Of a DNA stretch of 53,732 nt, positions 10,653 to 38,452 are shown one piece after another. Under the pieces are notes generated by a model. The model did not search any database. It was not told where the DNA came from and saw only the letters and a program-made list of their open reading frames with translations. The first letter of the stretch is position 1, and each line of letters opens with the position of its first letter. The stretch comes from a virus, in IMG/VR virus record IMGVR_UViG_3300031999_000026, positions 1 through 53,732 of that record; one strand, given 5' to 3'. A program made the translations under genes and the position numbers.

Positions 10653-11204
10653 TTATATATTAAATAATTCATTTACACTATTTTTCACACTTCCAAAATC
10701 TATATTACTTGGAGAATTTGGTTCTAGAGGTTGAAGTGATTGGCTTATTACTGCATCAATAGTTGTAGTTGTTGAGTGTTGTTTTTGTCCTCTTGGTTGT
10801 TTTTGTCCTGCTGCTACATTATTGATAAAAAACTCCATATCTTGAATTGGAGAGTTTCTATCTTCTTCAATTCTCGCGTATTTCCAGTCTATTGTATATC
10901 TTTGTCTACAATTTTCATATCCTGCTACTCTATTTGCTAAACATTTTAAAAAGTATTCTCCCCTTGCTTTCATTTGTGGATCTGCTACAATTCCAAACAA
11001 AAGATCTACTGTATGTAATAAACCACCAGATTCTGCTAATGATGTAATATTTGAATCATTATTAAGCCAACCACTGTTATGTGTTAATATATCATTGGCA
11101 AAAAATAATTTATGGTTTGAATCTACCACAATATCAATTGTATCTATTATATCATATTCTTCAATAGATACGATTTCATCTTCAATAATTTTAATATCAT
11201 TCAT
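10653..11204 (-). CDS. 41: Replicative helicase gp41, C-terminal half with split-intein C part
   Basis: Residues 1-43 are the C part of a split intein: TIDIVVDSNHKLFFANDIL is block F and the end THN, followed by Ser44, is the block G splice junction. Residues 44-183 complete the RecA-like core of the DnaB/gp41 helicase (SGWLNNDSN, then the region with AGYENCRQRYTIDWKYARIEED). The N half is encoded at 12591-13931 and ends in the matching intein N part. Trans-splicing would join ...PTQTNR to SGWLNNDS, giving a helicase of about 496 residues, close to T4 gp41 (475). The C-terminal tail is polar and likely flexible. The start overlaps the homing endonuclease gene by 8 bases. Confidence 0.88.
   Translation of the reverse strand: MNDIKIIEDEIVSIEEYDIIDTIDIVVDSNHKLFFANDILTHNSGWLNNDSNITSLAESGGLLHTVDLLFGIVADPQMKARGEYFLKCLANRVAGYENCRQRYTIDWKYARIEEDRNSPIQDMEFFINNVAAGQKQPRGQKQHSTTTTIDAVISQSLQPLEPNSPSNIDFGSVKNSVNELFNI
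11076..11204 (-). other. Split intein, C part (gp41)
   Basis: This 43-residue intein fragment ends in His-Asn and is followed by Ser as the +1 nucleophile. Its size and motif (hydrophobic block F, NDILTHN end) match C parts of the naturally split gp41 inteins described in 'fractured' phage genes. Confidence 0.88.
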
Positions 11205-12570
11205 TTTTTAAAAAATTTAAACATTCATTTATAATTTCTTCTTTATTTTTATGATACACAGATTCCCATATAATTTTTATTTTATACTCATGTTTTGATG
11301 CTAATTCTTGTTTATATTTATCATTTTCCCATATATCTTTAGCATAAATATGAGTCATTTTATTAACATCATTTTCATTATATTTAAGTGGATTCATATG
11401 CCAAAAATCTCCATTAAACTCAATTATTTTATTATTATATGTAAAATCATAAAAAAATAATTTATTAGTTACTTCATCATAAATAAACATTTCTGTATTA
11501 TTTCCCATAAATTTACAATATTCATCATTAAGTTTATTTTTTAATATTTCAAATAAATTTTTTGAAATATCCGATGCATTCTTTTTATTTATTAAATTAT
11601 CAATTAATCTTTTTTTTGCTTTTATATATTCTATTTTACCTTGTTCTTCTCCATATTTTTCAATATAATATTCTATAGTATGCGCATATTTTTGTTTTAA
11701 AATATATTCATTATATTTTTTATTTCCTTCAATTTCACCATATATTTGAATATATTTTTCTTTATGTGGTATTTTAGATTTATTTCTTTTTTCTTTTAAA
11801 AAATTTTCAAACCATTTATTTCCGTGTTTTCTTCTTATATTACCATACCAAGTATGATCTTTGAATATTATTTTTCCATCCTCTCCATAAGTATCAATAT
11901 AATATTGTTTTGATTTTTTATATGAATTTTTTTTATTTTTATTCTCCCATTTTAATAATCCTTCTTTTTCTCCATGTCGTTGTATATAACCCTCTTTTGT
12001 ATTTACAACAGCATATGTTTCTTGTCTTTTATCATATAATTTTTTCCCGGTTTCTTTTCCATATTTTTTAATATATCCTTCAAGTGAATTTCCAAATTTA
12101 TAATTTTTTATATAATTATCATATTTTTTTCTTCCTTCTTCTTCTCCACATTTATTAATCAATGTATCCAAATTATTAGGACATTTCGATTTTAATATTA
12201 ATGTAGATTGTTCCTCTCCAAATTTATCAATTAAATATTCTTTTGTACTTGTTATTTTTTGTTTCTCTGATCTTTTTAAATATCTTTTTTCTCCTTCTAT
12301 TTCTCCATATCGTATTAAAAATGATTTTTTTGTTGAACTATCTTTTTTTAAATTTTTAATTTCTTGTAAACGCTTAATAATATCATATTCAGAAAAATCA
12401 TATATTAACAAATCTATTATTTTTCTTATATCATAATCATATGTATGATATTTATTTTTTGATTCTAAATAATCATTTAAACTTTTTAAAGTTTTAATAC
12501 AATGCATATCAAAACTTATATTAAAACTTAATTTTAATAGTTTAATTTTAAAATTTTCTATAGCTTCCAT
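11197..12570 (-). CDS. Vsr-like (EDxHD) homing endonuclease between gp41 halves (457 aa)
   Basis: The N-terminal 330 residues contain about nine copies of a module patterned S/T-x-x-x-Y-I-x-x-Y/H-GE-x-x-G-x-x-x-Y (for example EGYIKKYGKETGKKLYDK), probably DNA-binding. The C-terminal 100 residues hold the nuclease: FYDFTYNNKIIEFNGDFWHM then NP at about 373-394, followed by KIKIIWESVYHKNKE. This is the pattern of the Vsr-related EDxHD homing endonucleases known from fractured genes with split inteins. It stands free between the gp41 halves, 20 bases after one and overlapping the other by 8. It should cut an uninterrupted gp41 allele and spread the arrangement by gene conversion. It looks intact. 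Confidence 0.82.
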   Translation of the reverse strand: MEAIENFKIKLLKLSFNISFDMHCIKTLKSLNDYLESKNKYHTYDYDIRKIIDLLIYDFSEYDIIKRLQEIKNLKKDSSTKKSFLIRYGEIEGEKRYLKRSEKQKITSTKEYLIDKFGEEQSTLILKSKCPNNLDTLINKCGEEEGRKKYDNYIKNYKFGNSLEGYIKKYGKETGKKLYDKRQETYAVVNTKEGYIQRHGEKEGLLKWENKNKKNSYKKSKQYYIDTYGEDGKIIFKDHTWYGNIRRKHGNKWFENFLKEKRNKSKIPHKEKYIQIYGEIEGNKKYNEYILKQKYAHTIEYYIEKYGEEQGKIEYIKAKKRLIDNLINKKNASDISKNLFEILKNKLNDEYCKFMGNNTEMFIYDEVTNKLFFYDFTYNNKIIEFNGDFWHMNPLKYNENDVNKMTHIYAKDIWENDKYKQELASKHEYKIKIIWESVYHKNKEEIINECLNFLKNE

Positions 12571-12590
12571 AACTCATATATTTTTTTCGT

Positions 12591-13931
12591 TTACTCATTT
12601 GTTCTTATATATATCTTATCTCCCTTATGAAAATTTGATACTTGTTGTAATGAGTTGTTAATAGGAAATACATGATTTTTAGAACAGATGATTTCTTTTC
12701 CAGATTTAGTTTTTATTTTATATGTTTTTGTACTTTTATTATTATAAATATTATTAACTTTTACATACCCTTCATCTCCTAATATAAAATCATTTATTTT
12801 TAAATCTTTAAGTTTAATTTTTCCCTTATCTTTATGATATATTATAGTATTTGGGTCTAAACAACGATTGGTTTGAGTAGGTGAAATAATAGCCCAATTA
12901 TTTTCTTGCCCCATTGCTCTAACATCTTCAGAAATTTGTTTTATTTTCATATATAAATTCTCAGTGTTAGGATTTCTCCAATTTTTCATAATATTTAAAT
13001 AATCTATAAAAATGTTTTCAAATTTATACCCCAATATTTCTTGAGCTTTTCTTAAGTAAGCACCAATATCATTTGCAGATGCAGTTGAAGATGGAAATTC
13101 TTTAACATGTAATTCACCAAGAGGTTTAATAGATCTTTGTTTTAAATTCGTAAGTTTTTGTTTAAGTAATGATTGATCTTTTGTAAATTCTTCATAATCA
13201 TCTAAAGGAATATTTAACATATTTGCGCCTATTCTCATGTTTACAATTTCTTCTTGTAATTCTAATGTGATATATGCTGTATTGTGCCCATTAATTACAG
13301 ATTTTGCTGCTAAATTACAAAGCCAAGTAGATTTTCCGGCTTTAGGTGCACCCAATAACACTATAAGTGATCCTTTCCAATTACCACCTTTAGTACATAA
13401 ATCTATAAAATTATATCCCGTAGAAGTTCTTGCTAATCTTGTTTGTAAGTGAGATGCAGCGTCAAAGAAATTTTTACCCATATTAAAAGTAAAGTCTATA
13501 ATAGTTTCTGACGTTAGCATATGACGTGCTTTTTCAACAACTTCTTTTGCATTTTCTGCTGTAACTGTTGTAGTTTTCATGTATGCGATTACTTTTCGCA
13601 TCACATTATCAAGATTTCTAATTTCAATCCATGGTCCTATATTATTTTCCAACCATTGATCACCATATTGTGATAAAAGTTGTTTTGTATTATAAACAGC
13701 ATCAATTATATCATTAGTAAATTTTTCACTTAGTCCTTTTATTTGAACCAATTGAATCATTTGTTCCTTTGAGGGTGCTTCTTTATATCTTAAACAATGC
13801 TCTTTGGCAATTTCAAATAATTCTTTAATATTTTGATTTGTGAAAAAATCAGGCTTTGTTGTATTAAGAAATAAAGAATTGCTTAAGATATAATGGTAGA
13901 AAATTTGCTCTTGGTAGCTATTTATGCTCAT
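12591..13931 (-). CDS. 41: Replicative helicase gp41, N-terminal half with split-intein N part
   Basis: The first 356 residues are a DnaB/gp41-type helicase: N-terminal helical domain, then Walker A GAPKAGKST (194-202), Walker B IFIDYLNIM near 317-325 and the segment IISPTQTNR. At Cys357 a split-intein N part of 90 residues begins: CLDPNTIIYH is block A and GKEIICSKNHVF is block B, with Ser replacing the usual Thr of TxxH. The stop comes right after the intein part. The other half lies at 10653-11204. The product should be the 5'-3' replicative helicase working with primase. The insertion site, between QTNR and SG, is in the most conserved part of the ATPase. A degraded copy of this gene's 5' end lies at 33454-33552. 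Confidence 0.9.
   Translation of the reverse strand: MSINSYQEQIFYHYILSNSLFLNTTKPDFFTNQNIKELFEIAKEHCLRYKEAPSKEQMIQLVQIKGLSEKFTNDIIDAVYNTKQLLSQYGDQWLENNIGPWIEIRNLDNVMRKVIAYMKTTTVTAENAKEVVEKARHMLTSETIIDFTFNMGKNFFDAASHLQTRLARTSTGYNFIDLCTKGGNWKGSLIVLLGAPKAGKSTWLCNLAAKSVINGHNTAYITLELQEEIVNMRIGANMLNIPLDDYEEFTKDQSLLKQKLTNLKQRSIKPLGELHVKEFPSSTASANDIGAYLRKAQEILGYKFENIFIDYLNIMKNWRNPNTENLYMKIKQISEDVRAMGQENNWAIISPTQTNRCLDPNTIIYHKDKGKIKLKDLKINDFILGDEGYVKVNNIYNNKSTKTYKIKTKSGKEIICSKNHVFPINNSLQQVSNFHKGDKIYIRTNE
12594..12863 (-). other. Split intein, N part (gp41)
   Basis: This 90-residue fragment starts with the catalytic Cys (CLDPNT) and contains the block B histidine (SKNH). The length is that of canonical split inteins cut at the usual endonuclease position. 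Confidence 0.88.
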
Positions 13932-13944
13932 ATTAAATGAATAT

Positions 13945-14220: not shown

Positions 14221-14246
14221 ATTCTAAAAATAGTTTATTTTTATAT

Positions 14247-14281
14247 CAACAAAAAGATCTAAAGTTTTCTCTAGATCTTTA
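14247..14281 (-). terminator. Hairpin terminator after the 14301-14525 gene
   Basis: A 9-bp inverted repeat (AAAGATCTA / TAGATCTTT) with a 10-base loop is followed on the minus strand by TTTTTG. It ends the uvsX transcript and separates it from the gp41 operon. Confidence 0.75.
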
Positions 14282-14300
14282 ATAAATTGTTAAAAGATTC

Positions 14301-14525: not shown

Positions 14526-14536
14526 ATTAGTTATTT

Positions 14537-16144
14537 TTAATTTCCTAAATTTGTTAAATCAATTGGATCTTCTATTATTTCATTGTCATCTAATAAATCA
14601 TCGGTTACTTCAGCTAAATCTTCTAAACTTTCTATTGAAGGCAAAGAAAATGTCTTCTTTATGATATTATTATCTAATTCATGCAATACTTCATCTGTAA
14701 ATACTGTTGAAGTATATAATTGTGATACGGGAAATTCTCCTCCTAAATGTTTACAAACAAGATATTTTGATGTATCTCTTGGTTCTACCCAAACTTTGGC
14801 GTTAGGTTTTTTTACTGAAACAGTTAAGCCTTTTGTGTTTATTTCTTCAACTAAATCCCAACCCTGCCACTGAAAAGATACCTTTTTTTCATCATCTTTT
14901 AATTTATCATATTCTATTTGGGTATGCATTTTTCCTCTAACAATTCCACAATTATCCCAATTTACAAATCTTTCTAAACCTACATAAGGATTTGGCTTTT
15001 TATAAAATGGAATATGAATTTTAACAGGAATTGGCCGTGCAAATCTTTGCTTATAGGGCCAAAGGGTTACAACTATACCAACTTTTGCTCCCTCAAGTCC
15101 TTGTTTTTTAACATGTTCTTCAGAATCTTTATCAGTCAATTTTGATTTCGTAAGTGTAAACATTATCGAAGGTGAATATTTTCCTCCTCCACCACCAGAT
15201 ATAGTATTACCACCTATAAATGAACCGATTGAAGCGTACACGTGGTTGCAAATTACAAAGGGTATACCTTTCTTAGCAAAATCATTACCAATAACTCTAA
15301 AAGTTCTACGAATTTGTTGAGATTTGGTCATATCCCTTTTATCTGATCCGCTTGTAGCGTCAGTCTTTTCTTTTGTAGATGATAAACTTCCTAATGAATC
15401 AAGAACAACCATGATTTTTGGTACATCTTTCTTAGCAGCTTTAAGTTCTGAAACAGTCTCATTAAGCTTAGCAGCTAAAGTTGTAAATTCTTCAACTGTA
15501 CCTACGTTTTCAATACGGATTTTCGCAGTATCGATTCCTAATCTTTTAAGAAAATCGACATCAATAGAACCTTCTGAATCATAATAGATTGGAAAATAAC
15601 CCATTGATTGAGCATTACGTACAATACTGCAAGCAAGATATGTCTTACCAGAATTATGACTACTTAAACCATTTCCTGACCAATATCGATGATTATCATG
15701 AAGAATTTCAAAATCATAAACAATTTCTGATTTATATGATTTTTTTATTTTTAGTTTTCTATATCCATCTTTTGTTAGTAAAAGATCACTTAATATTAAA
15801 TCTTCGGTTTTTTTCCATCCTTTAGATGTTTCAAACATATGATCACTAGAGCACTTTGTTTTAAAGTTATCTACTGTCTCTATGTAAAATATAGGTTTTG
15901 GACCTTTTATATAAAAGTCTCCTACTTCACTAAACCCATCAGGAGTATCTATGACGAACGCAGTCTCTTGATAATTATCAATTAAATCTTTGATTTTTAT
16001 TTTCTGAGAATGATTCTTAACATATTCATCAAATTTCTTTTTCAGATATTCTTCACTACATTCTATTAAAGATTTTCCTAAAAATGTTTTAAAATTTTCT
16101 CCTAAAACAAATTGCAATTCTTGTTTAATTAGTTCTACATTCAT
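14537..16144 (-). CDS. uvsX: UvsX/RecA-like recombinase, C-terminal half with long split-intein C part
   Basis: Residues 1-164 are an unusually long intein C part. It includes a block-B-like TKCSSDHMF (96-104), block F (VYDFEILHDNHRYW) and the end SSHN. Ser165 starts the extein with SGKTYLACS, completing a Walker A motif begun in the N half (GEEG). The following 370 residues are a RecA/UvsX core: Walker B KIMVVLDSLGSL, loop regions with SGGGGGKYSPSIMF, and an acidic C-terminal tail ending in DPIDLTNLGN. Spliced, the recombinase is about 450 residues. It would coat single-stranded DNA and drive strand exchange. The start overlaps the homing endonuclease by 20 bases. The first 45 residues precede recognisable intein sequence and may be a partner-binding extension. 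Confidence 0.87.
   Translation of the reverse strand: MNVELIKQELQFVLGENFKTFLGKSLIECSEEYLKKKFDEYVKNHSQKIKIKDLIDNYQETAFVIDTPDGFSEVGDFYIKGPKPIFYIETVDNFKTKCSSDHMFETSKGWKKTEDLILSDLLLTKDGYRKLKIKKSYKSEIVYDFEILHDNHRYWSGNGLSSHNSGKTYLACSIVRNAQSMGYFPIYYDSEGSIDVDFLKRLGIDTAKIRIENVGTVEEFTTLAAKLNETVSELKAAKKDVPKIMVVLDSLGSLSSTKEKTDATSGSDKRDMTKSQQIRRTFRVIGNDFAKKGIPFVICNHVYASIGSFIGGNTISGGGGGKYSPSIMFTLTKSKLTDKDSEEHVKKQGLEGAKVGIVVTLWPYKQRFARPIPVKIHIPFYKKPNPYVGLERFVNWDNCGIVRGKMHTQIEYDKLKDDEKKVSFQWQGWDLVEEINTKGLTVSVKKPNAKVWVEPRDTSKYLVCKHLGGEFPVSQLYTSTVFTDEVLHELDNNIIKKTFSLPSIESLEDLAEVTDDLLDDNEIIEDPIDLTNLGN
15653..16144 (-). other. Atypically split intein, C part (uvsX)
   Basis: This 164-residue fragment carries nearly the whole intein fold, including the block B His, and ends in His-Asn before Ser. 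It pairs with an N part of only 26 residues. The layout is like the atypically split AceL-TerL and VidaL inteins, though with an N-terminal extension. Confidence 0.82.
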
Positions 16145-17369
16145 TTAATTCTAATATTTTATTAATTATTCTATTCTTAGCATATTCAAAAGTTTCATTT
16201 TCCCATATTACCAGATAATTAAATTTTCTCGACAACGCTAATTGCTGTTTATACTCATCATTTAAATATTGTTCATCTGCAGTTTTTCTAGATATAGGAT
16301 TAATCCATTTTTTCCATTCTGATTCGGAAAGTATATCTTTATTCGGATGAAAAGCTACTCCATTATACTCTATAATTAAATTTATATCTTTTATACATAG
16401 ATCATAAAAATTTATCTTTTTATTATCATAATTATATATGAAATATTCATTACTTCCCATATATACTCTTTTAAATTCAATATTATACTTATTTTTTATT
16501 ACTTTTAAAACTTCTTCAAATAAATCTATAGATTTTTGTGAATATCGTTTAGATCGTGTTGTTTTTCTTATAAGTATACTTAATTTTTCTTCATTTGTTT
16601 TAGAATTTAATGTGTTTAACCATTTATCTATTGTTTTCTTAAATTTTATTATACCCTCTTCTCTACCATATAATTCTATGTAATGATCTAAAGATCGTGT
16701 ATCTTGAATTTGGCGTAATTGTTCTGATGCGTCGTTAAGTGAAAGCCCTTTATTAATCCAATATTTTATTTGTCTAACTGTTAAAATTTCTTCTCCATTT
16801 TCTTTTCGTTTAATATAAGATTCTTTTCCTAGATTAGAATAAAAATTAAACATCTTTGCTTTCGCATCATCTTCACTAATTCCCTTATCTAACCAATAAT
16901 TTATCTGTGAAGGTCTCCAAAATTTTTTATGTTTACCCGCATTGTAATTTAATGAATACGTATTACATCTCTTAATAGTATATTCATTAAATTTTTCTAA
17001 ACCTAATCTCTCTCCGTATTTTTTAACGAATTTTTCTAGAGAATTATTAGATTGTAATTTTTTAATGAAAGATATAGATTCTTCTTCGCTCCATCCTCTA
17101 CTAATATAATATCTTTTATTTAAACGAGTATTACTATAGAATCCTAAAAATGATAAGTTAGGTTGGGATTTTTTTAATTTAAAAATATTTAAATAATGTT
17201 CATATTTTTGTATAAGAAAATTTTCTTCTATATTCTTATTCAAAGATGGAATTATCTCAAAAATGATTTCTTTGAATAAATCATAAGAAACAGGATTGTT
17301 TAATCGTTTTCTTTTATGATTCGAATTAGAAGTAAAGAAAAATAAATCTTCAAGATTTTTTGATTTCAT
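16125..17369 (-). CDS. Vsr-like (EDxHD) homing endonuclease between uvsX halves (414 aa)
   Basis: The C-terminal 100 residues contain NFYDLCIKDINLIIEYNGVA followed by FHPNKD (320-345) and FNYLVIWENETFEYAKNRI, the same nuclease pattern as the gp41-associated enzyme. The N-terminal part has two to three of the Y-G-x-x-x-G repeats (KKYGERLGLEKFNEY, LYGREEGIIKFKK) and two other repeated modules patterned INYWL/I-x-KG-I/L-S. It overlaps both uvsX halves by exactly 20 bases. It probably cleaves intein-less uvsX alleles to spread the fracture. It appears intact. Confidence 0.8.
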   Translation of the reverse strand: MKSKNLEDLFFFTSNSNHKRKRLNNPVSYDLFKEIIFEIIPSLNKNIEENFLIQKYEHYLNIFKLKKSQPNLSFLGFYSNTRLNKRYYISRGWSEEESISFIKKLQSNNSLEKFVKKYGERLGLEKFNEYTIKRCNTYSLNYNAGKHKKFWRPSQINYWLDKGISEDDAKAKMFNFYSNLGKESYIKRKENGEEILTVRQIKYWINKGLSLNDASEQLRQIQDTRSLDHYIELYGREEGIIKFKKTIDKWLNTLNSKTNEEKLSILIRKTTRSKRYSQKSIDLFEEVLKVIKNKYNIEFKRVYMGSNEYFIYNYDNKKINFYDLCIKDINLIIEYNGVAFHPNKDILSESEWKKWINPISRKTADEQYLNDEYKQQLALSRKFNYLVIWENETFEYAKNRIINKILELNECRTN

Positions 17370-17667
17370 GTTTTTGAGATATATTACTTTTTAATATATA
17401 TATCTCAATTTTTTCATCTTTTTGTAAACATCCCTCTTCTCCTGCGAACATAAGTGATCTCCTGTTAGGCATACCACCGAATAGGGAACCACTTAACGCA
17501 GCATTAAGGATATACGAACCGGTAGGTATCCATTCGTCTATCCTCGCATATATACTATCTTCTACTATTGCTCCGTCTGGAGAAAATTTTGAGAGCAAAT
17601 CATTTAATTCTGTGAATGAAGGTTTGCTATTTCCTGAGGATTTAGCTGCAGACATTTTTTTAGCCAT
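17350..17667 (-). CDS. uvsX: UvsX/RecA-like recombinase, N-terminal half with ultra-short intein N part
   Basis: Residues 1-79 are the N-terminal region of a UvsX/RecA-like recombinase and end inside the Walker A motif (SLMFAGEEG). Cys80 starts a split-intein N part of only 26 residues (CLQKDEKIEIYIL, then a polar tail) before the stop. The rest is encoded at 14537-16144. The start, MAKKMSAAKSSGNSKPS, follows an A/T-only leader. Because the P-loop is cut in two, neither half can bind ATP, so recombinase activity depends entirely on trans-splicing. Confidence 0.85.
   Translation of the reverse strand: MAKKMSAAKSSGNSKPSFTELNDLLSKFSPDGAIVEDSIYARIDEWIPTGSYILNAALSGSLFGGMPNRRSLMFAGEEGCLQKDEKIEIYILKSNISQKHEIKKS
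17353..17430 (-). other. Atypically split intein, ultra-short N part (uvsX)
   Basis: Only 26 residues, starting with Cys, remain after the extein. Canonical intein N parts are 90-120 residues; this one contains little more than block A. It must pair with the 164-residue C part at 15653-16144. Confidence 0.82.
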
Positions 17668-20777: not shown

Positions 20778-21734
20778 TCAAAAAAGAGCAGATGCATAAA
20801 TTAAATTTTCTGGTATGGGATTAAACCCCATAGCTTCCATAATACGATTAAACGGATCAATTATAGTTTTACTAAATTGCAAATCATAATCAACTTCTGG
20901 TGCAAATTCGCAAGGAAAACAATTAGGCAAGAAACCAAATACTTCATTGCCATCTTTTGTGTAATAAAATTTAATCTTATCTCCGGTTTTAATTATATTG
21001 TATTTAGTTTTCCATTTAGGACTATTTAAAATAATATGATTATATACTGCAGAAGCTCTAACATTTTGAGGGCACTTATCTGCTAAACGTATTTGTTTTT
21101 TATCTTCTAAAGCATATTTTTCATAATCACCAAGTGCTTGTGTTTTTGCAACATCTTCGGGATTTTGAAGAACATATTCTTTTTTGTATTCTTTTAATCT
21201 TTTAACTACATCTGTATATTGAATATTTTTTCCTTTTTCACAAGCCATTTTTATCATTTCTTTTAAAGCTTTTCTTGCAAATTTTGGAGTTGAACCCTGA
21301 ACAATTTCTACACCCACAAATTTAATTTTCTCTTGTGGTTTAAAACTAACACCCGGTTCTTTCCATACTAAATCTAAAATATATTTCTTTTTTGCAACCA
21401 TAATTGCAGAATAAGAAATTTTTTCTAATTCTAAATTTTGTATATTTATAGTATTAAACTTTTTAGCATATTCTTCGAATTTTTTATTAAGATAACTGTC
21501 TAATCTTAATTTTTTAATATTAAGAATAAAATCTACTTGATCTCCAGAATAATCACATGATTTTAATACAGGATCATATGTAATGAAACAACTATTATGT
21601 ACTAATATATCGTTTGCAATAAATGTATGAGTATCATCATCTACTTCAACATCATAGACATATTCATCTTCAAATGTTCCAATTTCTTCACAAGATTCTA
21701 TTTCATCAAAATAAAATTCCATATTATTTTTCAT
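20778..21734 (-). CDS. 43: DNA polymerase gp43, C-terminal piece with split-intein C part
   Basis: Residues 1-47 are an intein C part: YVYDVEVDDDTHTFIANDIL is block F and VHN is the end. Ser48 is the +1 residue and completes motif C (YMDTD joined to SCFITYD). The next 270 residues are the family B polymerase palm-thumb: AIMVAKKKYILDLVWKEPG, IKFVGVEIVQGSTPKFAR (KxY/KGxE region) and a C-terminal end ASALF. The C-terminus would be the site for clamp binding in T4-type polymerases. The preceding piece is at 21922-22620. Between them lie only scars of a homing endonuclease. Confidence 0.87.
   Translation of the reverse strand: MKNNMEFYFDEIESCEEIGTFEDEYVYDVEVDDDTHTFIANDILVHNSCFITYDPVLKSCDYSGDQVDFILNIKKLRLDSYLNKKFEEYAKKFNTINIQNLELEKISYSAIMVAKKKYILDLVWKEPGVSFKPQEKIKFVGVEIVQGSTPKFARKALKEMIKMACEKGKNIQYTDVVKRLKEYKKEYVLQNPEDVAKTQALGDYEKYALEDKKQIRLADKCPQNVRASAVYNHIILNSPKWKTKYNIIKTGDKIKFYYTKDGNEVFGFLPNCFPCEFAPEVDYDLQFSKTIIDPFNRIMEAMGFNPIPENLIYASALF
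21594..21734 (-). other. Split intein, C part (gp43)
   Basis: This is a 47-residue C part ending Val-His-Asn before Ser. It pairs with the Ser-initiated N part at 21925-22272. Confidence 0.85.
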
Positions 21735-21739
21735 ATTTA

Positions 21740-21821
21740 GTTATAATAATCATTCCAAATCTTTAATCCTTTTTCTTCTCCGTGTTTAATTATAGATTTT
21801 TCTTTAGTAGGAGTTGTATAT
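21740..21821 (-). pseudogene. Minus-strand scar of a homing endonuclease between gp43 halves
   Basis: The minus strand encodes YTTPTKEKSIIKHGEEKGLK followed by IWNDYYN and a stop, with no start codon. This matches the repeat module of the gp41-associated endonuclease (KEGYIQRHGEKEGLLKWEN). It abuts the intein C-part gene and is best read as the last fragment of a lost endonuclease. Confidence 0.7.
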
Positions 21822-21825
21822 TAAT

Positions 21826-21921
21826 AAATCAAAATCTTTAACATTAAATAATTTTAAACGAAAATATGGTGATAAAAAAGGAACCAAAAAATTTATTGAA
21901 TATGCAGATACTGATAAAATG
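21826..21921 (+). pseudogene. Plus-strand scar of a homing endonuclease between gp43 halves
   Basis: The plus strand encodes SKSLTLNNFKRKYGDKKGTK then KFIEYADTDKM, which fits the same Y-G-x-K-x-G-x-x-x-F/Y module as the Vsr-like endonucleases but on the opposite strand. It abuts the intein N-part stop. An open frame continues into antisense polymerase sequence, which is not expected to be meaningful. Confidence 0.6.
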
Positions 21922-22620
21922 TTACTTAATGCATATAACTTTGTCGCCTCGCCTAACATCTTTAGGTTTAATTTCTATTTGATGATTATTTCGAAAAACT
22001 ATCAATGAATGATCATTAGTAACGATAACTTCTTTACCTGATTTAGTTTTAAGTTTCCATTTCGATTTTGAAACTTTATGACGAATTATACGTTTAATGG
22101 GTGTAAAATATAAACCACCATCGGGACTCCAGTTTAAAATTTTATCAAGGGATGATACTGATTCATGACCAATTAAAGTTTTATCATATTTATTTTTAAA
22201 ATTTTCATTATATAATGTTTCTATTGTCATACTTTTTTTATTCGTTGTTACTCTTGTATCTTTTCCGACGCTATCCGTATCCATATAAATTGTAAAAGTT
22301 TTTTCATTAAGTTTATTAATTCGAGTTAATCCTAAAGCTTTATGAAGTTCAGTATCAGTATGCCAATAATTTAAAAAATATTCATCAATACATTTACTTG
22401 CATATTTTGCTACATCTTGGCCTTGTAATGTAACGGCTTCCGCTAAAAGTACGTTATAACACTCAAACCAAGGTGAACCCGATGCCCCATAGATCGAATT
22501 TATAAATACCTTTATCGCATTTTGAATGCCATTATATTCTTCTTTCAAATTATTTAATCTTTCTACTTCTCCTTCTAATTCTTCTATACTGCAATTATAC
22601 GGATCTATTTTAAATTCCAT
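21922..22620 (-). CDS. 43: DNA polymerase gp43, middle (palm/motif B-C) piece with split-intein N part
   Basis: Residues 1-116 contain polymerase motif B (AIKVFINSIYGASGSPWF, 35-52) and end at motif C, YMDTD. Ser117 begins a 116-residue intein N part (SVGKDTRVTT, block B GKEVIVTNDHSL). The insertion point, after DTD with an intein starting SVxxDT, is the classic site of archaeal PolB inteins. The piece begins just before motif B, so the 3'-5' exonuclease domain and motif A (DxxSLYPS) are missing. They do not occur in this window. The enzyme must therefore be assembled from at least three polypeptides, or the rest lies elsewhere as a gp43A-type gene. Confidence 0.87.
   Translation of the reverse strand: MEFKIDPYNCSIEELEGEVERLNNLKEEYNGIQNAIKVFINSIYGASGSPWFECYNVLLAEAVTLQGQDVAKYASKCIDEYFLNYWHTDTELHKALGLTRINKLNEKTFTIYMDTDSVGKDTRVTTNKKSMTIETLYNENFKNKYDKTLIGHESVSSLDKILNWSPDGGLYFTPIKRIIRHKVSKSKWKLKTKSGKEVIVTNDHSLIVFRNNHQIEIKPKDVRRGDKVICIK
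21925..22272 (-). other. Split intein, N part (gp43)
   Basis: This 116-residue N part starts with Ser rather than Cys and has a block B TNDH. Splicing would therefore use a Ser-initiated acyl shift. Confidence 0.83.
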
Positions 22621-27015: not shown

Positions 27016-27375
27016 TTACCAATTTTCTAAAGCATATTCAATCCAGCCTTCAATAGCATTTATAGCATCTTCAAGATCATCGAATTCTTCTTCATCATTA
27101 TAAGGCCTATATTGATCCTCAAAACCTGCAAGATATGGACTATTTTTTGTTGCATCATATTGAATTGTATAGAAACCTCCCATTTTTTTATGTTTTATCT
27201 CAAACACAAATCCATAACCTGGAGCATCACCAAGCAAAGATAAGTCAAGTTTTTCAACTTCTGAACCATTTAGATCATAAGTTTCTATTATATTACGTAA
27301 AGCAGATTCAATTTCTGCTAATATTTCATTAGAATTACTTGATTCATTCAAATTTTCTTTTACTAATTTTTTCAT
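27016..27375 (-). CDS. Tagged acidic protein of unknown function (119 aa)
   Basis: It opens MKKLVKENLNES, a clear example of the shared N-terminal motif. The remaining sequence is acidic with one beta-type core (GYGFVFEIKHKKMGGFYTIQ) and a C-terminal acidic helix (NDEEEFDDLEDAINAIEGWI). No family is recognised. It lies 24 bases from the upstream gene boundary and 4 bases from the next, in the tagged cluster. Confidence 0.55.
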   Translation of the reverse strand: MKKLVKENLNESSNSNEILAEIESALRNIIETYDLNGSEVEKLDLSLLGDAPGYGFVFEIKHKKMGGFYTIQYDATKNSPYLAGFEDQYRPYNDEEEFDDLEDAINAIEGWIEYALENW

Positions 27376-27379: not shown

Positions 27380-27754
27380 TTAATCTCTTATTGATACTGA
27401 AAAACCATAATCTTGATTTCCGGGAAATTGTACATTTACCTTATGTTTTTTTAATAAATCAAAATGTTCCTGTGTAAGAGCGCTGAAATAAGTTGTTAAG
27501 CATCTTGATATTCTCATTCCTTTGTACCATGGATCTTTTTTCCAAAAGCTTTCTTCAGATTTTCCCCACAATACTGTCCAGATAAAATGCTGAATTTCTG
27601 TAAATGTTGCACCTTCTTCTCTTTTGCTTCCTATAAATTCAAGAATTTTCCAAGTATTAGTCAAGGGCTTTTTCCCATAATTCATACCGAGAGCCGTTTT
27701 AGGATCTCGATATCTTTGAAAAGATATAGATTCATTTACGGTTTTAGCTCTCAT
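27380..27754 (-). CDS. Tagged protein, possible winged-helix domain (124 aa)
   Basis: It begins MRAKTVNESISFQRYRDPKT, combining the shared tag with a following F-x-R-x-x-DP-x-x-ALG segment. The middle (WKILEFIGSKREEGATFTEI, then QHFIWTVLWG) is paralogous to the 28548-28949 product (KILQFIEDAGPEGRRYSDII, KLAYELKYG) and looks like a winged-helix fold. A DNA-packaged or injected DNA-binding protein is possible. Function is not known. Confidence 0.55.
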   Translation of the reverse strand: MRAKTVNESISFQRYRDPKTALGMNYGKKPLTNTWKILEFIGSKREEGATFTEIQHFIWTVLWGKSEESFWKKDPWYKGMRISRCLTTYFSALTQEHFDLLKKHKVNVQFPGNQDYGFSVSIRD

Positions 27755-27756: not shown

Positions 27757-28530
27757 TTAAGCGTAATCATTAAGTAGTCTTTTATAATCTTTAACTACGC
27801 GATCATATATAGGTTTAGTTAAAAGTGCTACATCAATATGAGCCGGAATTAAAGATTGATACATTTCATTCTCTTCTTGTTTACTATGAGCAGATGTAGC
27901 TAAAGGTTGAGGACCTGCATAAAATTGAAATCCATTATCTTCATCTATTACAAGTGCTAGAGGATTATCTTCATCTTGTTTAACTTTTCTATCGATTACA
28001 TCGAATATTAAGCAAGCTATTTCTTCGCCATCTTCTCTTAAAGCTAGTTCATCACCAAGATCATCTGTTGGAAGTTCATCTAATTGAATTCCTAATTTTG
28101 CTTCTAAACTTCTGGCTACTTCACGAATTTGAGGATATTTTGCTTTAAATCCTTCTTTCATTTCATCTCTTTGAGCAAAGAAATCATCATTGCTCATATT
28201 TTCATTAACACCCTTTAATTCTGCTACATCAAATACTGCTGCAGCTTCTCCGCCGTCAAGCTCTACTACTTTAAAATTAATTCCTTTTTCTTCTAATTTA
28301 GCTAAAACTGCGTGCCAATCATATGCAGCATACGATGGAATAAAAACAGCTGATTCTGTGTCAATTCCCATTTCATCTACAGTTCTATAAATGTCTTCAA
28401 TATCTTGATCATATTCTGGATCACCTTTTTGTGGGCTTTGAGGCATATCTGCTACATAGTTTATTTCTTCTTCAAGATCAACTTTATAATCTTGATCATT
28501 TAAACTTTCATTAACTGATTTCGCTTTCAT
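27757..28530 (-). CDS. Tagged acidic protein of unknown function (257 aa)
   Basis: It starts MKAKSVNESLNDQD, a strong match to the shared motif. The body is acidic and includes an alpha/beta segment (ESAVFIPSYAAYDWHAVLAK, then LEEKGINFKVVELDGGEAAA) and a second one with LALVIDEDNGFQFYAG. No known enzyme motif was found. It lies 2 bases from the next tagged gene, in the same operon. Confidence 0.55.
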   Translation of the reverse strand: MKAKSVNESLNDQDYKVDLEEEINYVADMPQSPQKGDPEYDQDIEDIYRTVDEMGIDTESAVFIPSYAAYDWHAVLAKLEEKGINFKVVELDGGEAAAVFDVAELKGVNENMSNDDFFAQRDEMKEGFKAKYPQIREVARSLEAKLGIQLDELPTDDLGDELALREDGEEIACLIFDVIDRKVKQDEDNPLALVIDEDNGFQFYAGPQPLATSAHSKQEENEMYQSLIPAHIDVALLTKPIYDRVVKDYKRLLNDYA

Positions 28531-28547: not shown

Positions 28548-28949
28548 TTATACATTGAATTTTCCACCTGGTAATACTTTAGGTCCTATAGTCGATGACC
28601 CATAACGTGCACTGTTACTTACTTTTGCTTCTTCTTCTGGAGACATTTTTTGTTTTCTCAATATCCAGTTTCCTTTGTCATTTTTTGTAATATACTTTAT
28701 TAGATGACCAAAACCTCTATCATCTGGTGTAGGAGTTTTGAATGCACCTGACCAATGACCTCTATGTTCTCTAGAATAAGTTCCAGGACCATATTTTAGT
28801 TCATATGCAAGTTTTATAATATCTGAATATCTTCTTCCTTCAGGACCTGCATCTTCAATAAATTGAAGAATTTTATCAGATGTGCCTATTGAAGATACTC
28901 TTTTAGACTCTTCACGATTTATAGATTCATTAACGGTTCTTGCTTTCAT
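28548..28949 (-). CDS. Tagged protein, possible winged-helix domain (133 aa)
   Basis: The start at 28949 is chosen because it gives MKARTVNESINREE, aligning with the other tagged proteins; an upstream ATG at 28970 would add MKIKINK. The body (KILQFIEDAGPEGRRYSDII, KLAYELKYG, then HLIKYITKNDKGNWILRKQK) has helix-helix-wing character and resembles the 27380-27754 product, so the two are paralogues. No function is known. Confidence 0.6.
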   Translation of the reverse strand: MKARTVNESINREESKRVSSIGTSDKILQFIEDAGPEGRRYSDIIKLAYELKYGPGTYSREHRGHWSGAFKTPTPDDRGFGHLIKYITKNDKGNWILRKQKMSPEEEAKVSNSARYGSSTIGPKVLPGGKFNV

Positions 28950-28993
28950 TTTATTTATTTTTATTTTCATGTTTAGAAATTTATTTTTATTAT

Positions 28994-31644: not shown

Positions 31645-32079
31645 TCATTTTGTTAATTTTAATTCAGAATTCAATTTAGAACTTAATTTAGAATCCAGTT
31701 CAGAATTTAATTCAGATCTCAATTCAGAACTCAATTCAGAATGTAATTCAGACCACAATTCAGAACTCAATTCAGAATACAATTCAGAATTCAATTCAGA
31801 ATTCAATTCAGAACTCAATTCAGAATCCAATTCAGAATACAATTCAGAAGCTAATTCAAAACTTAATTCAGAATCCAATTCAGAATTTAATTCAGAATTT
31901 AATTCAGAATTCAATTCAGAACTCAATTCAGAATCCAATTCAGAATTCAATTCAGAACTCAATTCAGAATCCAATTCAGACCACAATTCAGAATACAATT
32001 CAGAATCCAATTCAGAACTCAATTCAGAATACAATTCAGAATACAATTCAGATATTTCAAATATATTCATCTTATTCAT
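31645..32079 (-). CDS. xSEL tetrapeptide-repeat protein A4 (144 aa)
   Basis: After the leader MNKMNIFEISEL the protein is an unbroken series of x-Ser-Glu-Leu tetrapeptides to its C-terminus (SELKLTK). The x position is variable (Y, D, W, S, N, H, R). It is the last of four chained frames: its ATG is one base after the TAA of the previous one (TAATATG). No family is recognised. A repeat-protein rod, amphipathic helix or coiled structure is possible. A DNA-level role for the repeat is also possible. Confidence 0.55.
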   Translation of the reverse strand: MNKMNIFEISELYSELYSELSSELDSELYSELWSELDSELSSELNSELDSELSSELNSELNSELNSELDSELSFELASELYSELDSELSSELNSELNSELYSELSSELWSELHSELSSELRSELNSELDSKLSSKLNSELKLTK

Positions 32080-32080
32080 A

Positions 32081-32323
32081 TTATAATTCAGAACCCAATT
32101 CAGATCTCAATTCAGAATCTAATTCAAATCTCAATTCAGAATTCAATTCAGAATCTAATTCAAATCTCAATTCAGAATTCAATTCAGAATACAATTCAGA
32201 ATTCAATTCAGAACCCAATTCAGATCTCAATTCAGAATCCAATTCAGACCATAATTCAGAATCTAATTCTGAATCCAATTCAGATATTTCAAATATATTC
32301 ATCTTATTCATATTATAATTCAA
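32081..32323 (-). CDS. xSEL tetrapeptide-repeat protein A3 (80 aa)
   Basis: The frame starts MNYNMNKMNIFEISEL; the inner MNKMN is an alternative start that matches the other leaders. It continues as xSEL repeats, with occasional Phe replacing Ser (RFEL), to a stop formed by the next leader (GAATTATAA). It overlaps the upstream frame by 11 bases. Confidence 0.5.
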   Translation of the reverse strand: MNYNMNKMNIFEISELDSELDSELWSELDSELRSELGSELNSELYSELNSELRFELDSELNSELRFELDSELRSELGSEL

Positions 32324-32627
32324 AACCTAATTCAGAATCCAATTCAGAACACAATTCAGACCATAATTCAGACCATAATTCAGACCATAATTTAGAACGC
32401 ACTTCAAAATACAATTCAGAACGCAATTCAGACCACAATTCAGACCATAATTTAGAACGCACTTCAAAATACAATTCAGAACGCAATTCAGACCACAATT
32501 CAGAATACAATTCAGAATCCAATTCAGAATACAATTCAGAATCTAATTCAAATCTCAATTCAGAATTCAATTCAGAATACAATTCAGATATTTCAAATAC
32601 ATTCATCTTATTCATATTATAATTCAT
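32313..32627 (-). CDS. xSEL tetrapeptide-repeat protein A2 (104 aa)
   Basis: The leader is MNYNMNKMNVFEISEL, followed by xSEL repeats. Its middle contains two copies of a variant block with LYFEVRSKLWSEL, arising from the 60-base duplication. It overlaps the previous and next frames by 11 bases each. Confidence 0.5.
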   Translation of the reverse strand: MNYNMNKMNVFEISELYSELNSELRFELDSELYSELDSELYSELWSELRSELYFEVRSKLWSELWSELRSELYFEVRSKLWSELWSELWSELCSELDSELGFEL

Positions 32628-32961
32628 ATTCCAATTTAGAATCCAATTCAGATCTCAATTCAGAATCTAATTCAGAACACAATTCAGAATCCAATTCAGA
32701 ACACAATTCAGAACCCAATTCAGATCTCAATTCAGAATCCAATTCAAAACTTAATTCAGATCTCAATTCAGAACGCAATTCAGAACTCAATTCAGACCAC
32801 AATTCAGAATCCAATTCAGAACACAATTCAGAACCCAATTCAGATCTCAATTCAGAATCCAATTCAAAACTTAATTCAGATCTCAATTCAGAACGCAATT
32901 CAGAACTCAATTCAGACCATAATTTAGAACGCACTTCAAAATACAATTCCATATCACTCAT
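32617..32961 (-). CDS. xSEL tetrapeptide-repeat protein A1, first of the array (114 aa)
   Basis: The start, MSDMELYFEVRSKLWSEL, lacks the MNKMN leader. Instead it uses the variant block that also occurs inside protein A2, so it may be derived by duplication. It contains the 120-base-period duplication. It is the first gene after the promoter-like element at 32969-33015. Confidence 0.5.
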   Translation of the reverse strand: MSDMELYFEVRSKLWSELSSELRSELRSELSFELDSELRSELGSELCSELDSELWSELSSELRSELRSELSFELDSELRSELGSELCSELDSELCSELDSELRSELDSKLEYEL

Positions 32962-33753: not shown

Positions 33754-33784
33754 ATAATTTATTATTTATATTCATAATTCTATT

Positions 33785-33931: not shown

Positions 33932-33949
33932 ATTTTTATCAGGGATTTT

Positions 33950-35401: not shown

Positions 35402-35405
35402 AATA

Positions 35406-35783: not shown

Positions 35784-35793
35784 TTATAAAATC

Positions 35794-36414: not shown

Positions 36415-36445
36415 GGTGTTAAATTTTTTGTTAATGTTTAATTTT

Positions 36446-37291
36446 TTAAAATCCTATTTTCTTTGTTTTAAAATTATCACTGTTATTATCAGTTCCATAA
36501 AAATAGATATCTGCAAGTGTCATAGATTCTTTAATTTCAACATTATGACCCAACTTTTTTAATAATGCTTGAGATTTATTAGCAACTAATTTTTCAAATT
36601 TATAATTCATTAAAAGTCTTCCTCTTCTTGTAAGTGCTTCATCAATATTCTTTTCTTTTGTATTAAAAGTAGCAACAATTGATATTTTTAAACAATCTGA
36701 AAGTAAACCATCAGTAAGATTAAGTACATTACTTACCGCACTACTTCTGCCTGCGGAATTTCTTTTTTCAAGAGCAGGTTCTGCATCTTCAATTATAAGA
36801 ATTGAATTATTATTGTTTATTAAAAATGGTATAAACGCTGGATCTGTAATCGAATCAACCATGTCTGGAGATATAAAGATGATATTCTTTTTAAGTTTAG
36901 TAGCAAGATAACGAATAAAACTAGTATTATGAGACAAAATACCATTTGTATAATATCTTTTATTTGAATCATAATCTAATTCTAGATCATACATATTTTC
37001 CGAAATACCTTTACTTTTTATAGAAATAACTTCAATTGGCCCCAATATACTATCAAGTATATCACCTTTAGAAAGATTTATAACAAATTCTTCTTTCCCA
37101 TTTTTAAATATTATATGATTATCTGCACAAAATAATTCAAATTTATTTGTAATTAAATGACATATATCATATTTAATAGTTTTATGTATAGCATTTATAT
37201 CAACCCACCCAGTATCTGTAAAAACTTCGTAATCATCTATTTTTTTTGATTCTATGAATTTTTTACTTAAATTAAATTTCTTTTTATTCAT
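36446..37291 (-). CDS. AAA+ ATPase, C-terminal half with long split-intein C part
   Basis: Residues 1-122 are an intein C part with block-B-like LFCADNHIIF (53-62), block F (MYDLELDYDSNKRYYTNGIL) and end SHN. Thr123 is the +1 residue and starts TSFIRYLATKL, completing the Walker A motif (GETGTGK joined to TSF). The remaining 158 residues carry Walker B (SILIIEDAEPAL), sensor 1 (ISIVATFNTKEK) and an arginine-finger-like EALTRRGRLLMNY, as in Bcs1-type or ClpX-like AAA+ enzymes. Spliced, the protein is about 439 residues. Its role in the phage is unknown. Confidence 0.83.
   Translation of the reverse strand: MNKKKFNLSKKFIESKKIDDYEVFTDTGWVDINAIHKTIKYDICHLITNKFELFCADNHIIFKNGKEEFVINLSKGDILDSILGPIEVISIKSKGISENMYDLELDYDSNKRYYTNGILSHNTSFIRYLATKLKKNIIFISPDMVDSITDPAFIPFLINNNNSILIIEDAEPALEKRNSAGRSSAVSNVLNLTDGLLSDCLKISIVATFNTKEKNIDEALTRRGRLLMNYKFEKLVANKSQALLKKLGHNVEIKESMTLADIYFYGTDNNSDNFKTKKIGF
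36926..37291 (-). other. Atypically split intein, C part (AAA+ ATPase)
   Basis: This 122-residue C part, including the block B His (ADNH), ends His-Asn before Thr. It pairs with a 27-residue N part, the AceL-TerL-like arrangement. Confidence 0.82.
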
Positions 37292-37526
37292 TTTTTAAAA
37301 AATTTATACATTCTTTTAATACAATTTCTTTATTCTTAAATATATTTAATTCCCATATAATTAAAATTTCATATCCTAATTTCTTAAGAGTTTTTATTTT
37401 AAATTCATCTTTTTTCCAAATTTGTTTAGCAGTTTTAATATTATTTTTAGCTATTAATGAATTAGATTCATATAATTCAGGATTAGCATGATAAATATCC
37501 ATGATAAAAATAACAGGAATTGCCAA
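37284..37526 (-). pseudogene. Truncated Vsr-like homing endonuclease between AAA+ halves (80 aa)
   Basis: Only the C-terminal part of the endonuclease remains: MDIYHANPELY aligns with GDFWHMNPLKY of the gp41-associated enzyme, and KKLGYEILIIWELNIFKNKE with HEYKIKIIWESVYHKNKE, both ending ECINFLKNE or similar. The N-terminal repeats and the first catalytic acidic residues are missing, so it should be inactive. An open frame persists from an ATG at 37526. It overlaps the intein C-part gene by 8 bases. Confidence 0.78.
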
Positions 37527-37528
37527 AA

Positions 37529-38452
37529 CTACATCAAATCTGCAATGTTAATTTCTTCTATTTTTTTAGTTTTTTTATTACGTATAGTTATTTTTGTATT
37601 TCCTACTACACATTTTCCTGTTCCAGTTTCTCCACTTAAAATAACAAGGTGGGTTTCTTTTTTAGAGTTTAATCCATCAACAATTTTTTGAGCTATTTCA
37701 GGAAAATTGTCATTATAATTTTCCTCAAGATTCATTTTTATTTTATTTACACTAAAACCTGTTTTTTCAAATGCATTAGTATTACGATGAACGACATAAA
37801 TTTTATTTTTTGTTAATTTAGGACGTTTAACACTTTTTAAAAGTCCTAATAGTATATAGAAAAAAGAATCTTTATTATTTTCATCTTTTGGGTTATAATA
37901 AATTGCGCCTTTATCTTTACCATCAACATATAGTAATAAATCTTCTTTAAAAGCAATAAGTAATGATGTTATACGTGCTTCATTTCTGCTTTGATGTGAA
38001 ACTTTAACATAAGATTCTTCGGGTACATTACAATGTTTAAATAAATTCTTAATAAAAGTAGTTATATTAAACTGCTCAAATCTATAGATATTAGGATGAA
38101 ATTTATTTATCTTATGATAACGATAAGCAAAATATTCCAATTCATCAGAAGAATTAAGATGTCCTTCTGAGCCATCATTCATATACACAAATTCATTTAC
38201 TCTATAAAAAGGCGTATTTTTAATATTTGTAAATTTTTGAAGTGGAATTTTGGCAATATTAACTGCAATATTTTTCCAATTTTGCTTATCTTCTATTGGA
38301 TTACCATTGTCATCATATTCATCATAATTTTCTATCTGCATAGCTTTTTTATTTTTTAAAAATATTTCTAGTTCTTTTTGAACTTCAGTATTTAAAATAT
38401 GTCCCCAATCAATTGCATCTGGGTCAACTTCTATTATTTTCCTTTGAGGCAT
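37529..38452 (-). CDS. AAA+ ATPase, N-terminal half with ultra-short intein N part
   Basis: Residues 1-280 are an unfamiliar N-terminal domain (VYMNDGSEGHLNSSDELEYF, then VYVVHRNTNAFEKTG) followed by the start of an AAA+ core ending in the Walker A segment LSGETGTGK (272-280). Cys281 begins a 27-residue intein N part (CVVGNTKITIRNKKTKKIEE, then INIADLM) before the stop. As with uvsX, the P-loop is severed between Lys and Thr, so the enzyme works only after trans-splicing with the product of 36446-37291. Confidence 0.82.
   Translation of the reverse strand: MPQRKIIEVDPDAIDWGHILNTEVQKELEIFLKNKKAMQIENYDEYDDNGNPIEDKQNWKNIAVNIAKIPLQKFTNIKNTPFYRVNEFVYMNDGSEGHLNSSDELEYFAYRYHKINKFHPNIYRFEQFNITTFIKNLFKHCNVPEESYVKVSHQSRNEARITSLLIAFKEDLLLYVDGKDKGAIYYNPKDENNKDSFFYILLGLLKSVKRPKLTKNKIYVVHRNTNAFEKTGFSVNKIKMNLEENYNDNFPEIAQKIVDGLNSKKETHLVILSGETGTGKCVVGNTKITIRNKKTKKIEEINIADLM
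37532..37612 (-). other. Atypically split intein, ultra-short N part (AAA+ ATPase)
   Basis: The 27-residue N part starts with Cys and ends before the usual block B, like the 25-residue N part of AceL-TerL. The pattern C-V-x-G-x-T is similar to that intein's start. Confidence 0.82.

What the first reader, a model, noticed from the sequence alone, without database searches (positions are those of the whole stretch)
10653..38452. Four active-site genes fractured by split inteins in one phage segment
gp41, uvsX, gp43 and an AAA+ ATPase are each divided into two genes ending and starting with matching intein parts. All four break points are in catalytic motifs: gp41 at QTNR|SG, uvsX and AAA+ inside the P-loop, gp43 inside motif C (DTD|S). 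The intervening space holds the same Vsr-like endonuclease family in four states: intact (gp41), intact (uvsX), C-terminal stump (AAA+), and two scars (gp43). This is a snapshot of the life cycle of fractured genes. Individual fractured gp41 genes are known from metagenomes; so many in one genome, with two split types side by side, seems unusual. Core replication and recombination would depend on four orthogonal trans-splicing reactions.
Basis: partly seen in the sequence, partly recalled or inferred. Interest (0 to 1): 0.93.

Follow-up and report, generated by a model that had tools for sequence, protein, structure and literature searches.

The report
Four phage genes fractured by split inteins
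A large bacterial virus carries four DNA-handling genes that are each broken in two and probably rejoined only as protein, by a known kind of parasitic element (a split intein with its own DNA-cutting enzyme); four in one genome is rich but not a record, and relatives show that such breaks open and close repeatedly.

Summary
In a 53.7-kb fragment of a jumbo-phage genome, gp41 helicase, uvsX, gp43 polymerase and an AAA+ ATPase are each split into two genes that carry complementary split-intein halves. Against intein-free relatives all four junctions are exact, and all lie in catalytic motifs. Two inteins are canonical (nearest gp41-1 and Aes123 PolB1); two are atypical, with 26-27-residue N parts (nearest VidaL and CatC). 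Vsr/EDxHD endonuclease genes are intact in gp41 and uvsX, a dead stump in AAA+, and two fragments (one inverted) in gp43.

These are 'fractured genes', a known kind. The rarity claim fails: public phage LR756500 has at least six, and two relatives of the window have three each.

The 'life cycle' idea gained support. A sister phage carries the uvsX and gp43 inteins unbroken; on a tree of 60 gp43 alleles, split and contiguous states interchange about 15 times; and one contiguous intein still contains the tail of a lost endonuclease, so fractures can heal. Trans-splicing and orthogonality remain inferred.

The parts
12864..13931 (-). gp41 (DnaB-type helicase) N-extein, ends ..SPTQTNR (motif H4)
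   Evidence: Pfam DnaB_C 1.8e-18, phrog_19 8e-50; junction alignment
12591..12863 (-). gp41 N-intein, 90 aa, CLDPNTIIYH.., canonical split, plus stop codon
   Evidence: joined intein matches gp41-1 6QAZ, E 1.5e-19
11197..12570 (-). intact Vsr/EDxHD homing endonuclease, 457 aa, overlaps the C-half start by 8 nt
   Evidence: alignment A1 with conserved D375, E384, H391; profile to Vsr 1ODG/1VSR/1CW0
11076..11204 (-). gp41 C-intein, 43 aa, ..FFANDILTHN
10653..11075 (-). gp41 C-extein, SGWLNNDS.., plus stop codon
   Evidence: phrog_19 7.6e-5
17431..17667 (-). uvsX N-extein, ends ..FAGEEG inside the P-loop
17350..17430 (-). uvsX N-intein, 26 aa, CLQKDEKIEIYILKSNISQKHEIKKS, atypical split, plus stop codon
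   Evidence: homologous to the start of the contiguous intein in G006
16125..17369 (-). intact Vsr-like homing endonuclease, 414 aa, overlaps both halves by 20 nt
   Evidence: sister of the LR756500 phoH endonuclease, 100/99
15653..16144 (-). uvsX C-intein, 164 aa, ..SGNGLSSHN
   Evidence: Pfam Intein_splicing 3.8e-5; VidaL 6VGV 2.3e-12
14537..15652 (-). uvsX C-extein, SGKTYLAC.., plus stop codon
   Evidence: phrog_97 UvsX-like recombinase 4e-39
22273..22620 (-). gp43B N-extein: motif B to motif C ..YMDTD (exonuclease and motif A not in window)
   Evidence: Pfam DNA_pol_B 2.8e-11; 43A absent from window
21922..22272 (-). gp43 N-intein, 116 aa, SVGKDTRV.., canonical split, plus stop codon
   Evidence: Pfam Intein_splicing 3.1e-9; Aes123 PolB1 9HTH 9e-17
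21814..21908 (+). inverted scar: fragment of an endonuclease DNA-binding repeat (INKSKSLTLNNFKRKYGDKKGTKKFIEY)
   Evidence: tblastn to gp43-linked endonucleases, E 2e-12
21740..21808 (-). sense-strand scar: second endonuclease repeat fragment (TKEKSIIKHGEEKGLKIWNDYYN)
   Evidence: tblastn E 1.6e-7
21594..21734 (-). gp43 C-intein, 47 aa, ..FIANDILVHN
   Evidence: Pfam Intein_splicing 1.5e-5
20778..21593 (-). gp43 C-extein, SCFITYDP.., plus stop codon
   Evidence: phrog_1918 1e-42
37613..38452 (-). AAA+ ATPase N-extein, ends ..SGETGTGK (P-loop)
   Evidence: aligned with intact relatives G004-G007
37529..37612 (-). AAA+ N-intein, 27 aa, CVVGNTKITIRNKKTKKIEEINIADLM, atypical split, plus stop codon
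   Evidence: 93%/85% identical in G001/G002
37284..37526 (-). endonuclease stump (last ~75-80 aa; catalytic D and IIEFNG segment lost), overlaps the C-half start by 8 nt
36926..37291 (-). AAA+ C-intein, 122 aa, ..TNGILSHN
   Evidence: model Foldseek top hits VidaL 6VGV 4.7e-5 and gp41-1; CatC 4e-4
36446..36925 (-). AAA+ C-extein, TSFIRYLA.., plus stop codon
   Evidence: Pfam AAA 3.8e-4; p97/26S-type AAA matches

Best explanation
These are four fractured genes of the kind described by Dassa et al. 2009 (paper not held here; known from citations and memory). Each host gene was invaded, at the DNA for a catalytic motif, by an intein. A homing endonuclease gene of the Vsr/EDxHD family, not fused to the intein, sits between the intein halves, so one gene became two plus the endonuclease. 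Inferred steps: the halves are translated separately (C-halves probably coupled to the overlapping endonuclease or stump frame), the two intein halves associate and splice in trans, and the active site is restored exactly. The endonuclease would spread the unit into intein-free alleles of co-infecting phages (inferred) and decays once sites are filled: deletion to a dead stump in AAA+, fragments with one inversion in gp43 (shown). The gene can re-fuse to a contiguous mini-intein, as in relatives (shown by comparison). In this phage replication and recombination would need four trans-splicing events, and the polymerase would also need pairing with a separate 43A subunit.
For: Exact gap-free junctions against relatives. 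All catalytic intein residues present: C1 or S1, block B His, terminal His-Asn, +1 Ser/Thr. Each intein matches a solved intein. Intein dN/dS 0.17-0.52 in five comparisons. Contiguous homologues of the uvsX and gp43 inteins in sister phage G006 show that the halves belong to one intein. Endonucleases keep Vsr catalytic residues and match Vsr structures. Empty alleles in relatives. Stump orthologous to complete AAA+ endonucleases. Scars are real endonuclease fragments. Opposite charges of the canonical halves: gp41 +8/-9, gp43 +13/-14. The C half of PA5oct UvsX, split the same way, is noted as detected by mass spectrometry (annotation). 53 of 74 gp43 intein alleles are split.
Against: No splicing, expression or endonuclease activity was measured. 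The record is a 53.7-kb fragment of a genome that is probably several hundred kb (a relative has 405 kb), so an intact second copy cannot be excluded. The window's AAA+ intein has no Pfam intein hit and its model has low confidence (mean pLDDT 52). Synonymous sites are near saturation in some dN/dS pairs, and those ratios average over both lineages.
Confidence: 0.9

Rival explanations
1. The split genes are dead or dying remnants, and the phage uses other copies or host proteins.
For: Two of the four sites have decayed endonucleases; the record is incomplete.
Against: All eight frames are open. Inteins and exteins are under purifying selection. Relatives hold a single uvsX and gp43B. Catalytic residues are intact. 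Split alleles make up 53 of 74 gp43 inteins.
Confidence: 0.05
2. The halves assemble without splicing, as in genes-in-pieces enzymes, and the intein parts are passive.
For: 43A and 43B appear as separate proteins in related phages. A ribonucleotide reductase split by a homing endonuclease that works as two peptides is cited in PMC10448857.
Against: The breaks lie inside P-loops and the DTD motif, where a chain break plus 26-164 foreign residues should destroy the site. The intein catalytic residues are conserved.
Confidence: 0.04
3. Frame breaks are assembly or sequencing errors in otherwise contiguous inteins.
For: Metagenomic contig; contiguous versions exist in G006.
Against: Whole endonuclease genes or large fragments lie between the halves. 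The same AAA+ split recurs in G001 and G002 and the uvsX split in PA5oct.
Confidence: 0.01

Closest known systems
Fractured genes with split inteins and Vsr/EDxHD homing endonucleases (Dassa et al. 2009, NAR 37:2560; cited in PMC12350094, PMC6892783)
   Same: gene split at an intein site, complementary intein halves, endonuclease gene between them
   Different: four in one contig here, in four decay states, canonical and atypical splits side by side; comparative evidence that fractures heal
gp41-1 split intein (PDB 6QAZ)
   Same: canonical split; closest solved homologue of the gp41 intein
   Different: new sequence with its intact flanking endonuclease in a known genome context
VidaL atypically split intein (PDB 6VGV; PMC13014065)
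   Same: closest solved homologue of the uvsX intein; short N part
   Different: 26-residue instead of 16-residue N part and an extra ~45-residue N-terminal region of the C part
Aes123 PolB1 split intein and gp43A/gp43B1/VSR/gp43B2 of Aeromonas phages (JN377902; PDB 9HTH)
   Same: same DTD|S site, same three-gene polymerase, same endonuclease family
   Different: endonuclease decayed to two fragments here
AceL-TerL type atypical inteins (consensus CatC, PDB 6DSL)
   Same: N part of about 25 residues; weak sequence match of the AAA+ C-intein
   Different: host gene is an AAA+ ATPase, not terminase
Phage LR756500 (public, unannotated, 462 kb)
   Same: at least six fractured genes: gp43B, RNR, clamp loader, both topoisomerase subunits, phoH
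   Different: gp41 and uvsX are intact there; its phoH carries the sister of this uvsX intein

Membership tests
Fractured gene (Dassa et al.) | host gene divided into two genes exactly at an intein insertion site | tested here: met
   gap-free junctions versus intein-free relatives for all four
Fractured gene (Dassa et al.) | complementary intein halves with catalytic residues | tested here: met
Fractured gene (Dassa et al.) | homing endonuclease gene between the halves | tested here: met
   intact in gp41 and uvsX; stump in AAA+; fragments in gp43
Fractured gene (Dassa et al.) | protein trans-splicing restores the host protein | not testable with these tools
   needs expression of both halves
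Vsr/EDxHD homing endonuclease | Vsr-like catalytic core | tested here: met
   profile of 14 members hits 1ODG, 1VSR and 1CW0 at E 9e-4 to 1.2e-3; D375, E384 and H391 conserved. The AAA+ stump fails this: core lost
Vsr/EDxHD homing endonuclease | cleaves the empty allele and homes | not testable with these tools
   empty alleles exist in relatives
Canonically split intein (gp41, gp43) | N part about 90-120 aa, C part about 35-50 aa | tested here: met
   gp41 90/43, gp43 116/47
Atypically split intein (uvsX, AAA+) | N part about 15-37 aa, long C part | tested here: met
   uvsX 26/164, AAA+ 27/122; range from PMC13014065
Atypically split intein (AAA+) | intein (HINT) fold of the C part | tested here: inconclusive
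   Foldseek top hit VidaL 4.7e-5, but model pLDDT is low; sequence hit to CatC 4e-4
Mutually orthogonal split inteins | no cross-splicing among the four pairs | not testable with these tools
   pairwise intein identity 29-38% only suggests orthogonality

The most novel reading that the evidence does not exclude
Fracturing of phage genes by split inteins is a reversible, fast-turning cycle, not a one-way street from contiguous to split. gp43 alleles switch state about 15 times on a 60-allele tree; models with change in both directions beat one-way models by 10-12 log-likelihood units on the extein tree; and one contiguous intein (IMGVR_UViG_3300032242_002192) keeps in frame the tail of a lost endonuclease and the old start codon of the C-half. 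The same intein + endonuclease unit also occurs in unrelated P-loop genes (uvsX here, phoH in LR756500) at the same Walker-A position.
Probability: 0.6. Interest if true: 0.68.

Novelty: new member of a known kind. Interest (0 to 1): 0.52.

Why it matters
The window and its relatives hold, for the same genes, empty, contiguous, split-with-endonuclease, split-with-dead-endonuclease and re-fused alleles. That makes the origin and fate of natural split inteins testable: whether splitting comes first, what keeps a gene split after the endonuclease dies, and how it heals. Current literature says split inteins are believed to derive from contiguous ones (PMC12707363); the fossil endonuclease tail shows that the reverse also happens. 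The four inteins are also candidate protein-ligation tools: two with short N parts and two with strong opposite charges.

Tried and rejected
Homology between the extra N-terminal region of the uvsX C-intein (or the phoH one) and the N-terminus of the endonuclease of the same site was suggested by eye and rejected by shuffles, p 0.45-0.59. A scan of IMG/VR with the uvsX C-half as a single query found nothing; relatives came from the AAA+ and gp41 C-halves. A model of the intact AAA+ homologue for identification had low confidence (pLDDT 50) and was not searched further. No Pfam family matched the endonucleases above its cut-off. The idea that four fractured genes in one genome is a record was rejected. 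Dassa et al. 2009 could not be read, so its defining features are used from citations and memory.
Full report
WHAT WAS CHECKED. The window is an IMG/VR virus record of 53,732 bases with no other contig. The eight half-genes were read directly. I cut each half at its intein boundary, joined the exteins in silico only for comparison, and aligned them with homologues of related phages. In all four genes the intein-free relatives match across the junction without a gap: QTNR|SGW in gp41, AGEEG|SGKT in uvsX, YMDTD|S in gp43 and GTGK|T in the AAA+ protein.

INTEINS. gp41: 90 + 43 residues, closest solved structure gp41-1 (E 1.5e-19). gp43: 116 + 47 residues with Ser1, closest Aes123 PolB1 (9e-17). 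uvsX: 26 + 164 residues, closest VidaL (2.3e-12). AAA+: 27 + 122 residues, closest consensus CatC (4e-4) and VidaL (0.03). A low-confidence model of the AAA+ C-half has VidaL and gp41-1 inteins as its best structural matches, followed by p97/26S AAA domains. So two splits are canonical and two atypical; the published range for atypical N parts is 15-37 residues (PMC13014065). The inteins are 29-38% identical to one another, and the canonical pairs carry opposite charges, +8/-9 and +13/-14. dN/dS is 0.17 (uvsX) and 0.19 (gp43) against G006 and 0.27-0.52 for AAA+ against G001 and G002, which points to selection for function.

ENDONUCLEASES. The 457-aa and 414-aa proteins between the gp41 and uvsX halves align with endonucleases of other fractured genes. 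Conserved residues include D375, E384, H391 and W435, and the profile finds E. coli Vsr structures. The AAA+ stump covers only the last 75-80 residues, lacks the catalytic aspartate and the IIEFNG strand, and groups with the complete ~300-aa AAA+ endonucleases of G001 and G002 (support 99/97). The gp43 gap of 187 bases holds two DNA-binding-repeat fragments, one sense and one inverted (46.6 bits against a shuffle maximum of 26.9). C-half starts overlap the endonuclease or stump by 8-20 bases in three genes; translational coupling is my inference.

RELATIVES. Nine related IMG/VR records were found, among them a 405-kb contig (G002). States: gp41 is empty in all relatives seen. uvsX is empty in G002, G005, G007, G008 and LR756500, but contiguous with the same intein in G006. 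gp43B is empty in G002, G005, G007 and G008, contiguous in G006, and split in LR756500. AAA+ is split with a complete endonuclease in G001 and G002 and empty in G004-G007. Other fractured genes of the clade: the TOPRIM subunit of topoisomerase II in G002 (DED|C), the other topoisomerase subunit in G001 and G008 (HHGD|C), IMPDH in G001 and G002 and at a second site in G005. The window's own topoisomerase genes are unbroken. Ribonucleotide reductase has contiguous inteins in G002 and G005. LR756500 has at least six fractured genes (gp43B, RNR, clamp loader, two topoisomerase subunits, phoH). So the number in the window is high but not exceptional. Jug phages are another published case of many interrupted core genes (PMC12363816).

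GP43 IS IN THREE GENES. The window's gp43 begins at motif B. 43A, with the exonuclease and motif A, is absent from the window and lies about 50 kb away in G002 and G005. Aeromonas phage Aes509 is annotated with exactly this layout: gp43A, gp43B1 with N-intein, VSR endonuclease, gp43B2 with C-intein. Split gp43 is also annotated in Tenacibaculum phage PTm1 and readable in Lak, Campylobacter, Desulfovibrio and Vibrio phages.

IS THERE A LIFE CYCLE? A scan for gp43 C-halves gave 80 loci. With the public phages, 74 alleles could be scored: 53 split (34 with a Vsr endonuclease close by) and 21 contiguous; 20 of these are mini-inteins without an embedded endonuclease and one is a longer contiguous form. 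On an extein tree of 60 non-identical alleles the state changes 15 times, at least 12 of them forced by well-supported branches, and the states are no more clustered than shuffled labels. On the intein tree 16 changes are needed, 6 of them forced. A two-way model fits better than split-to-contiguous only or contiguous-to-split only, by 10.0 and 12.2 log units on the extein tree and 4.0 and 6.2 on the intein tree. Contiguous alleles nested among split ones include L163, L178/L181 and L117; for L178/L181 the intein tree does not confirm the sister relation to L172, so exchange of the intein is possible there. The clearest case of healing is L174: its contiguous intein contains VWQNDDLLNRQNQLIKI, matching the endonuclease tail VWQKDDFINRENILNKI of relative L142 at 11 of 17 positions (0 of 20,000 shuffles as good). 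It is followed by a methionine at the place of the C-half start. The simplest reading is that this gene was split, lost its endonuclease by an in-frame deletion and is one gene again. L163 keeps MN at the old start position as well. Published opinion is that split inteins derive from contiguous ones (PMC12707363); the data here add the reverse step.

MOVEMENT BETWEEN GENES. The uvsX intein of the window is 41% identical to the intein in phoH of LR756500 and 36% to that in PA5oct uvsX. The two endonucleases are sisters with 100/99 support, and both sit at the same Walker A position, G|[ST]GKT, of two non-homologous ATPases. The simplest reading is that the endonuclease recognises DNA for the P-loop motif and carried the unit from one gene to the other. 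The direction is open.

WHAT IS SHOWN AND WHAT IS INFERRED. Shown: gene structure, exact sites, family membership of inteins and endonucleases, conservation, allele states, decay. Inferred: trans-splicing in the cell, orthogonality, endonuclease homing, translational coupling, dependence of replication on splicing.

VERDICT. Real and rich, but of a known kind; the specific novelty is comparative: reversible fracturing, and the same P-loop unit in unrelated genes.

Noticed in passing
5310-5540, 5994-6326, 27016-27375, 27380-27754, 27757-28530, 28548-28970, 45429-46088, 51453-51797, 52264-52662 (all -): At least nine seemingly unrelated small proteins start with a shared leader, M-[KR]-x-K-[LTS]-V-[NK]-E-[SN]-[LI] (e.g. 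MRAKTVNESIS, MKAKSVNESLN, MKKLVNESLNE). It is hardly seen in seven stretches of relatives G006 and G002. Possibly a capsid-targeting peptide cut by a prohead protease; unexplained.
   Followed up: partly
31645-32961 and 44896-45472 (-): Runs of ORFs made almost only of an SEL[DYRSWN] repeat, in two separate clusters; function unknown.
   Followed up: no
22664-24352 (-): 562-aa protein with no Pfam or PHROG match between gp45 and gp43B; it contains a PD-(D/E)xK-like stretch (SYDIVFLNGKIYEVKSY) and has no match in the relatives' stretches searched.
   Followed up: partly
25431-26144 (+) and 48450-49277 (-): By eye, a GIY-YIG-type and an HNH-type free-standing homing endonuclease, further mobile elements in the same segment.
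   Followed up: no
L053:17321-19899 and L057:6450-9184: IMPDH (GuaB) is fractured at two different sites in two related phages, with endonucleases that look different.
   Followed up: partly
L086:2867-6129: LR756500 phoH is split in its P-loop by an atypical intein that is sister to the window's uvsX intein.
   Followed up: yes
L098:2284-5290: PA5oct uvsX is split in the P-loop (81-aa N gene with a 17-residue N-intein) with a Vsr-like endonuclease between; N gene and endonuclease are annotated as hypothetical proteins, the C-half as a recombinase seen by mass spectrometry.
   Followed up: partly
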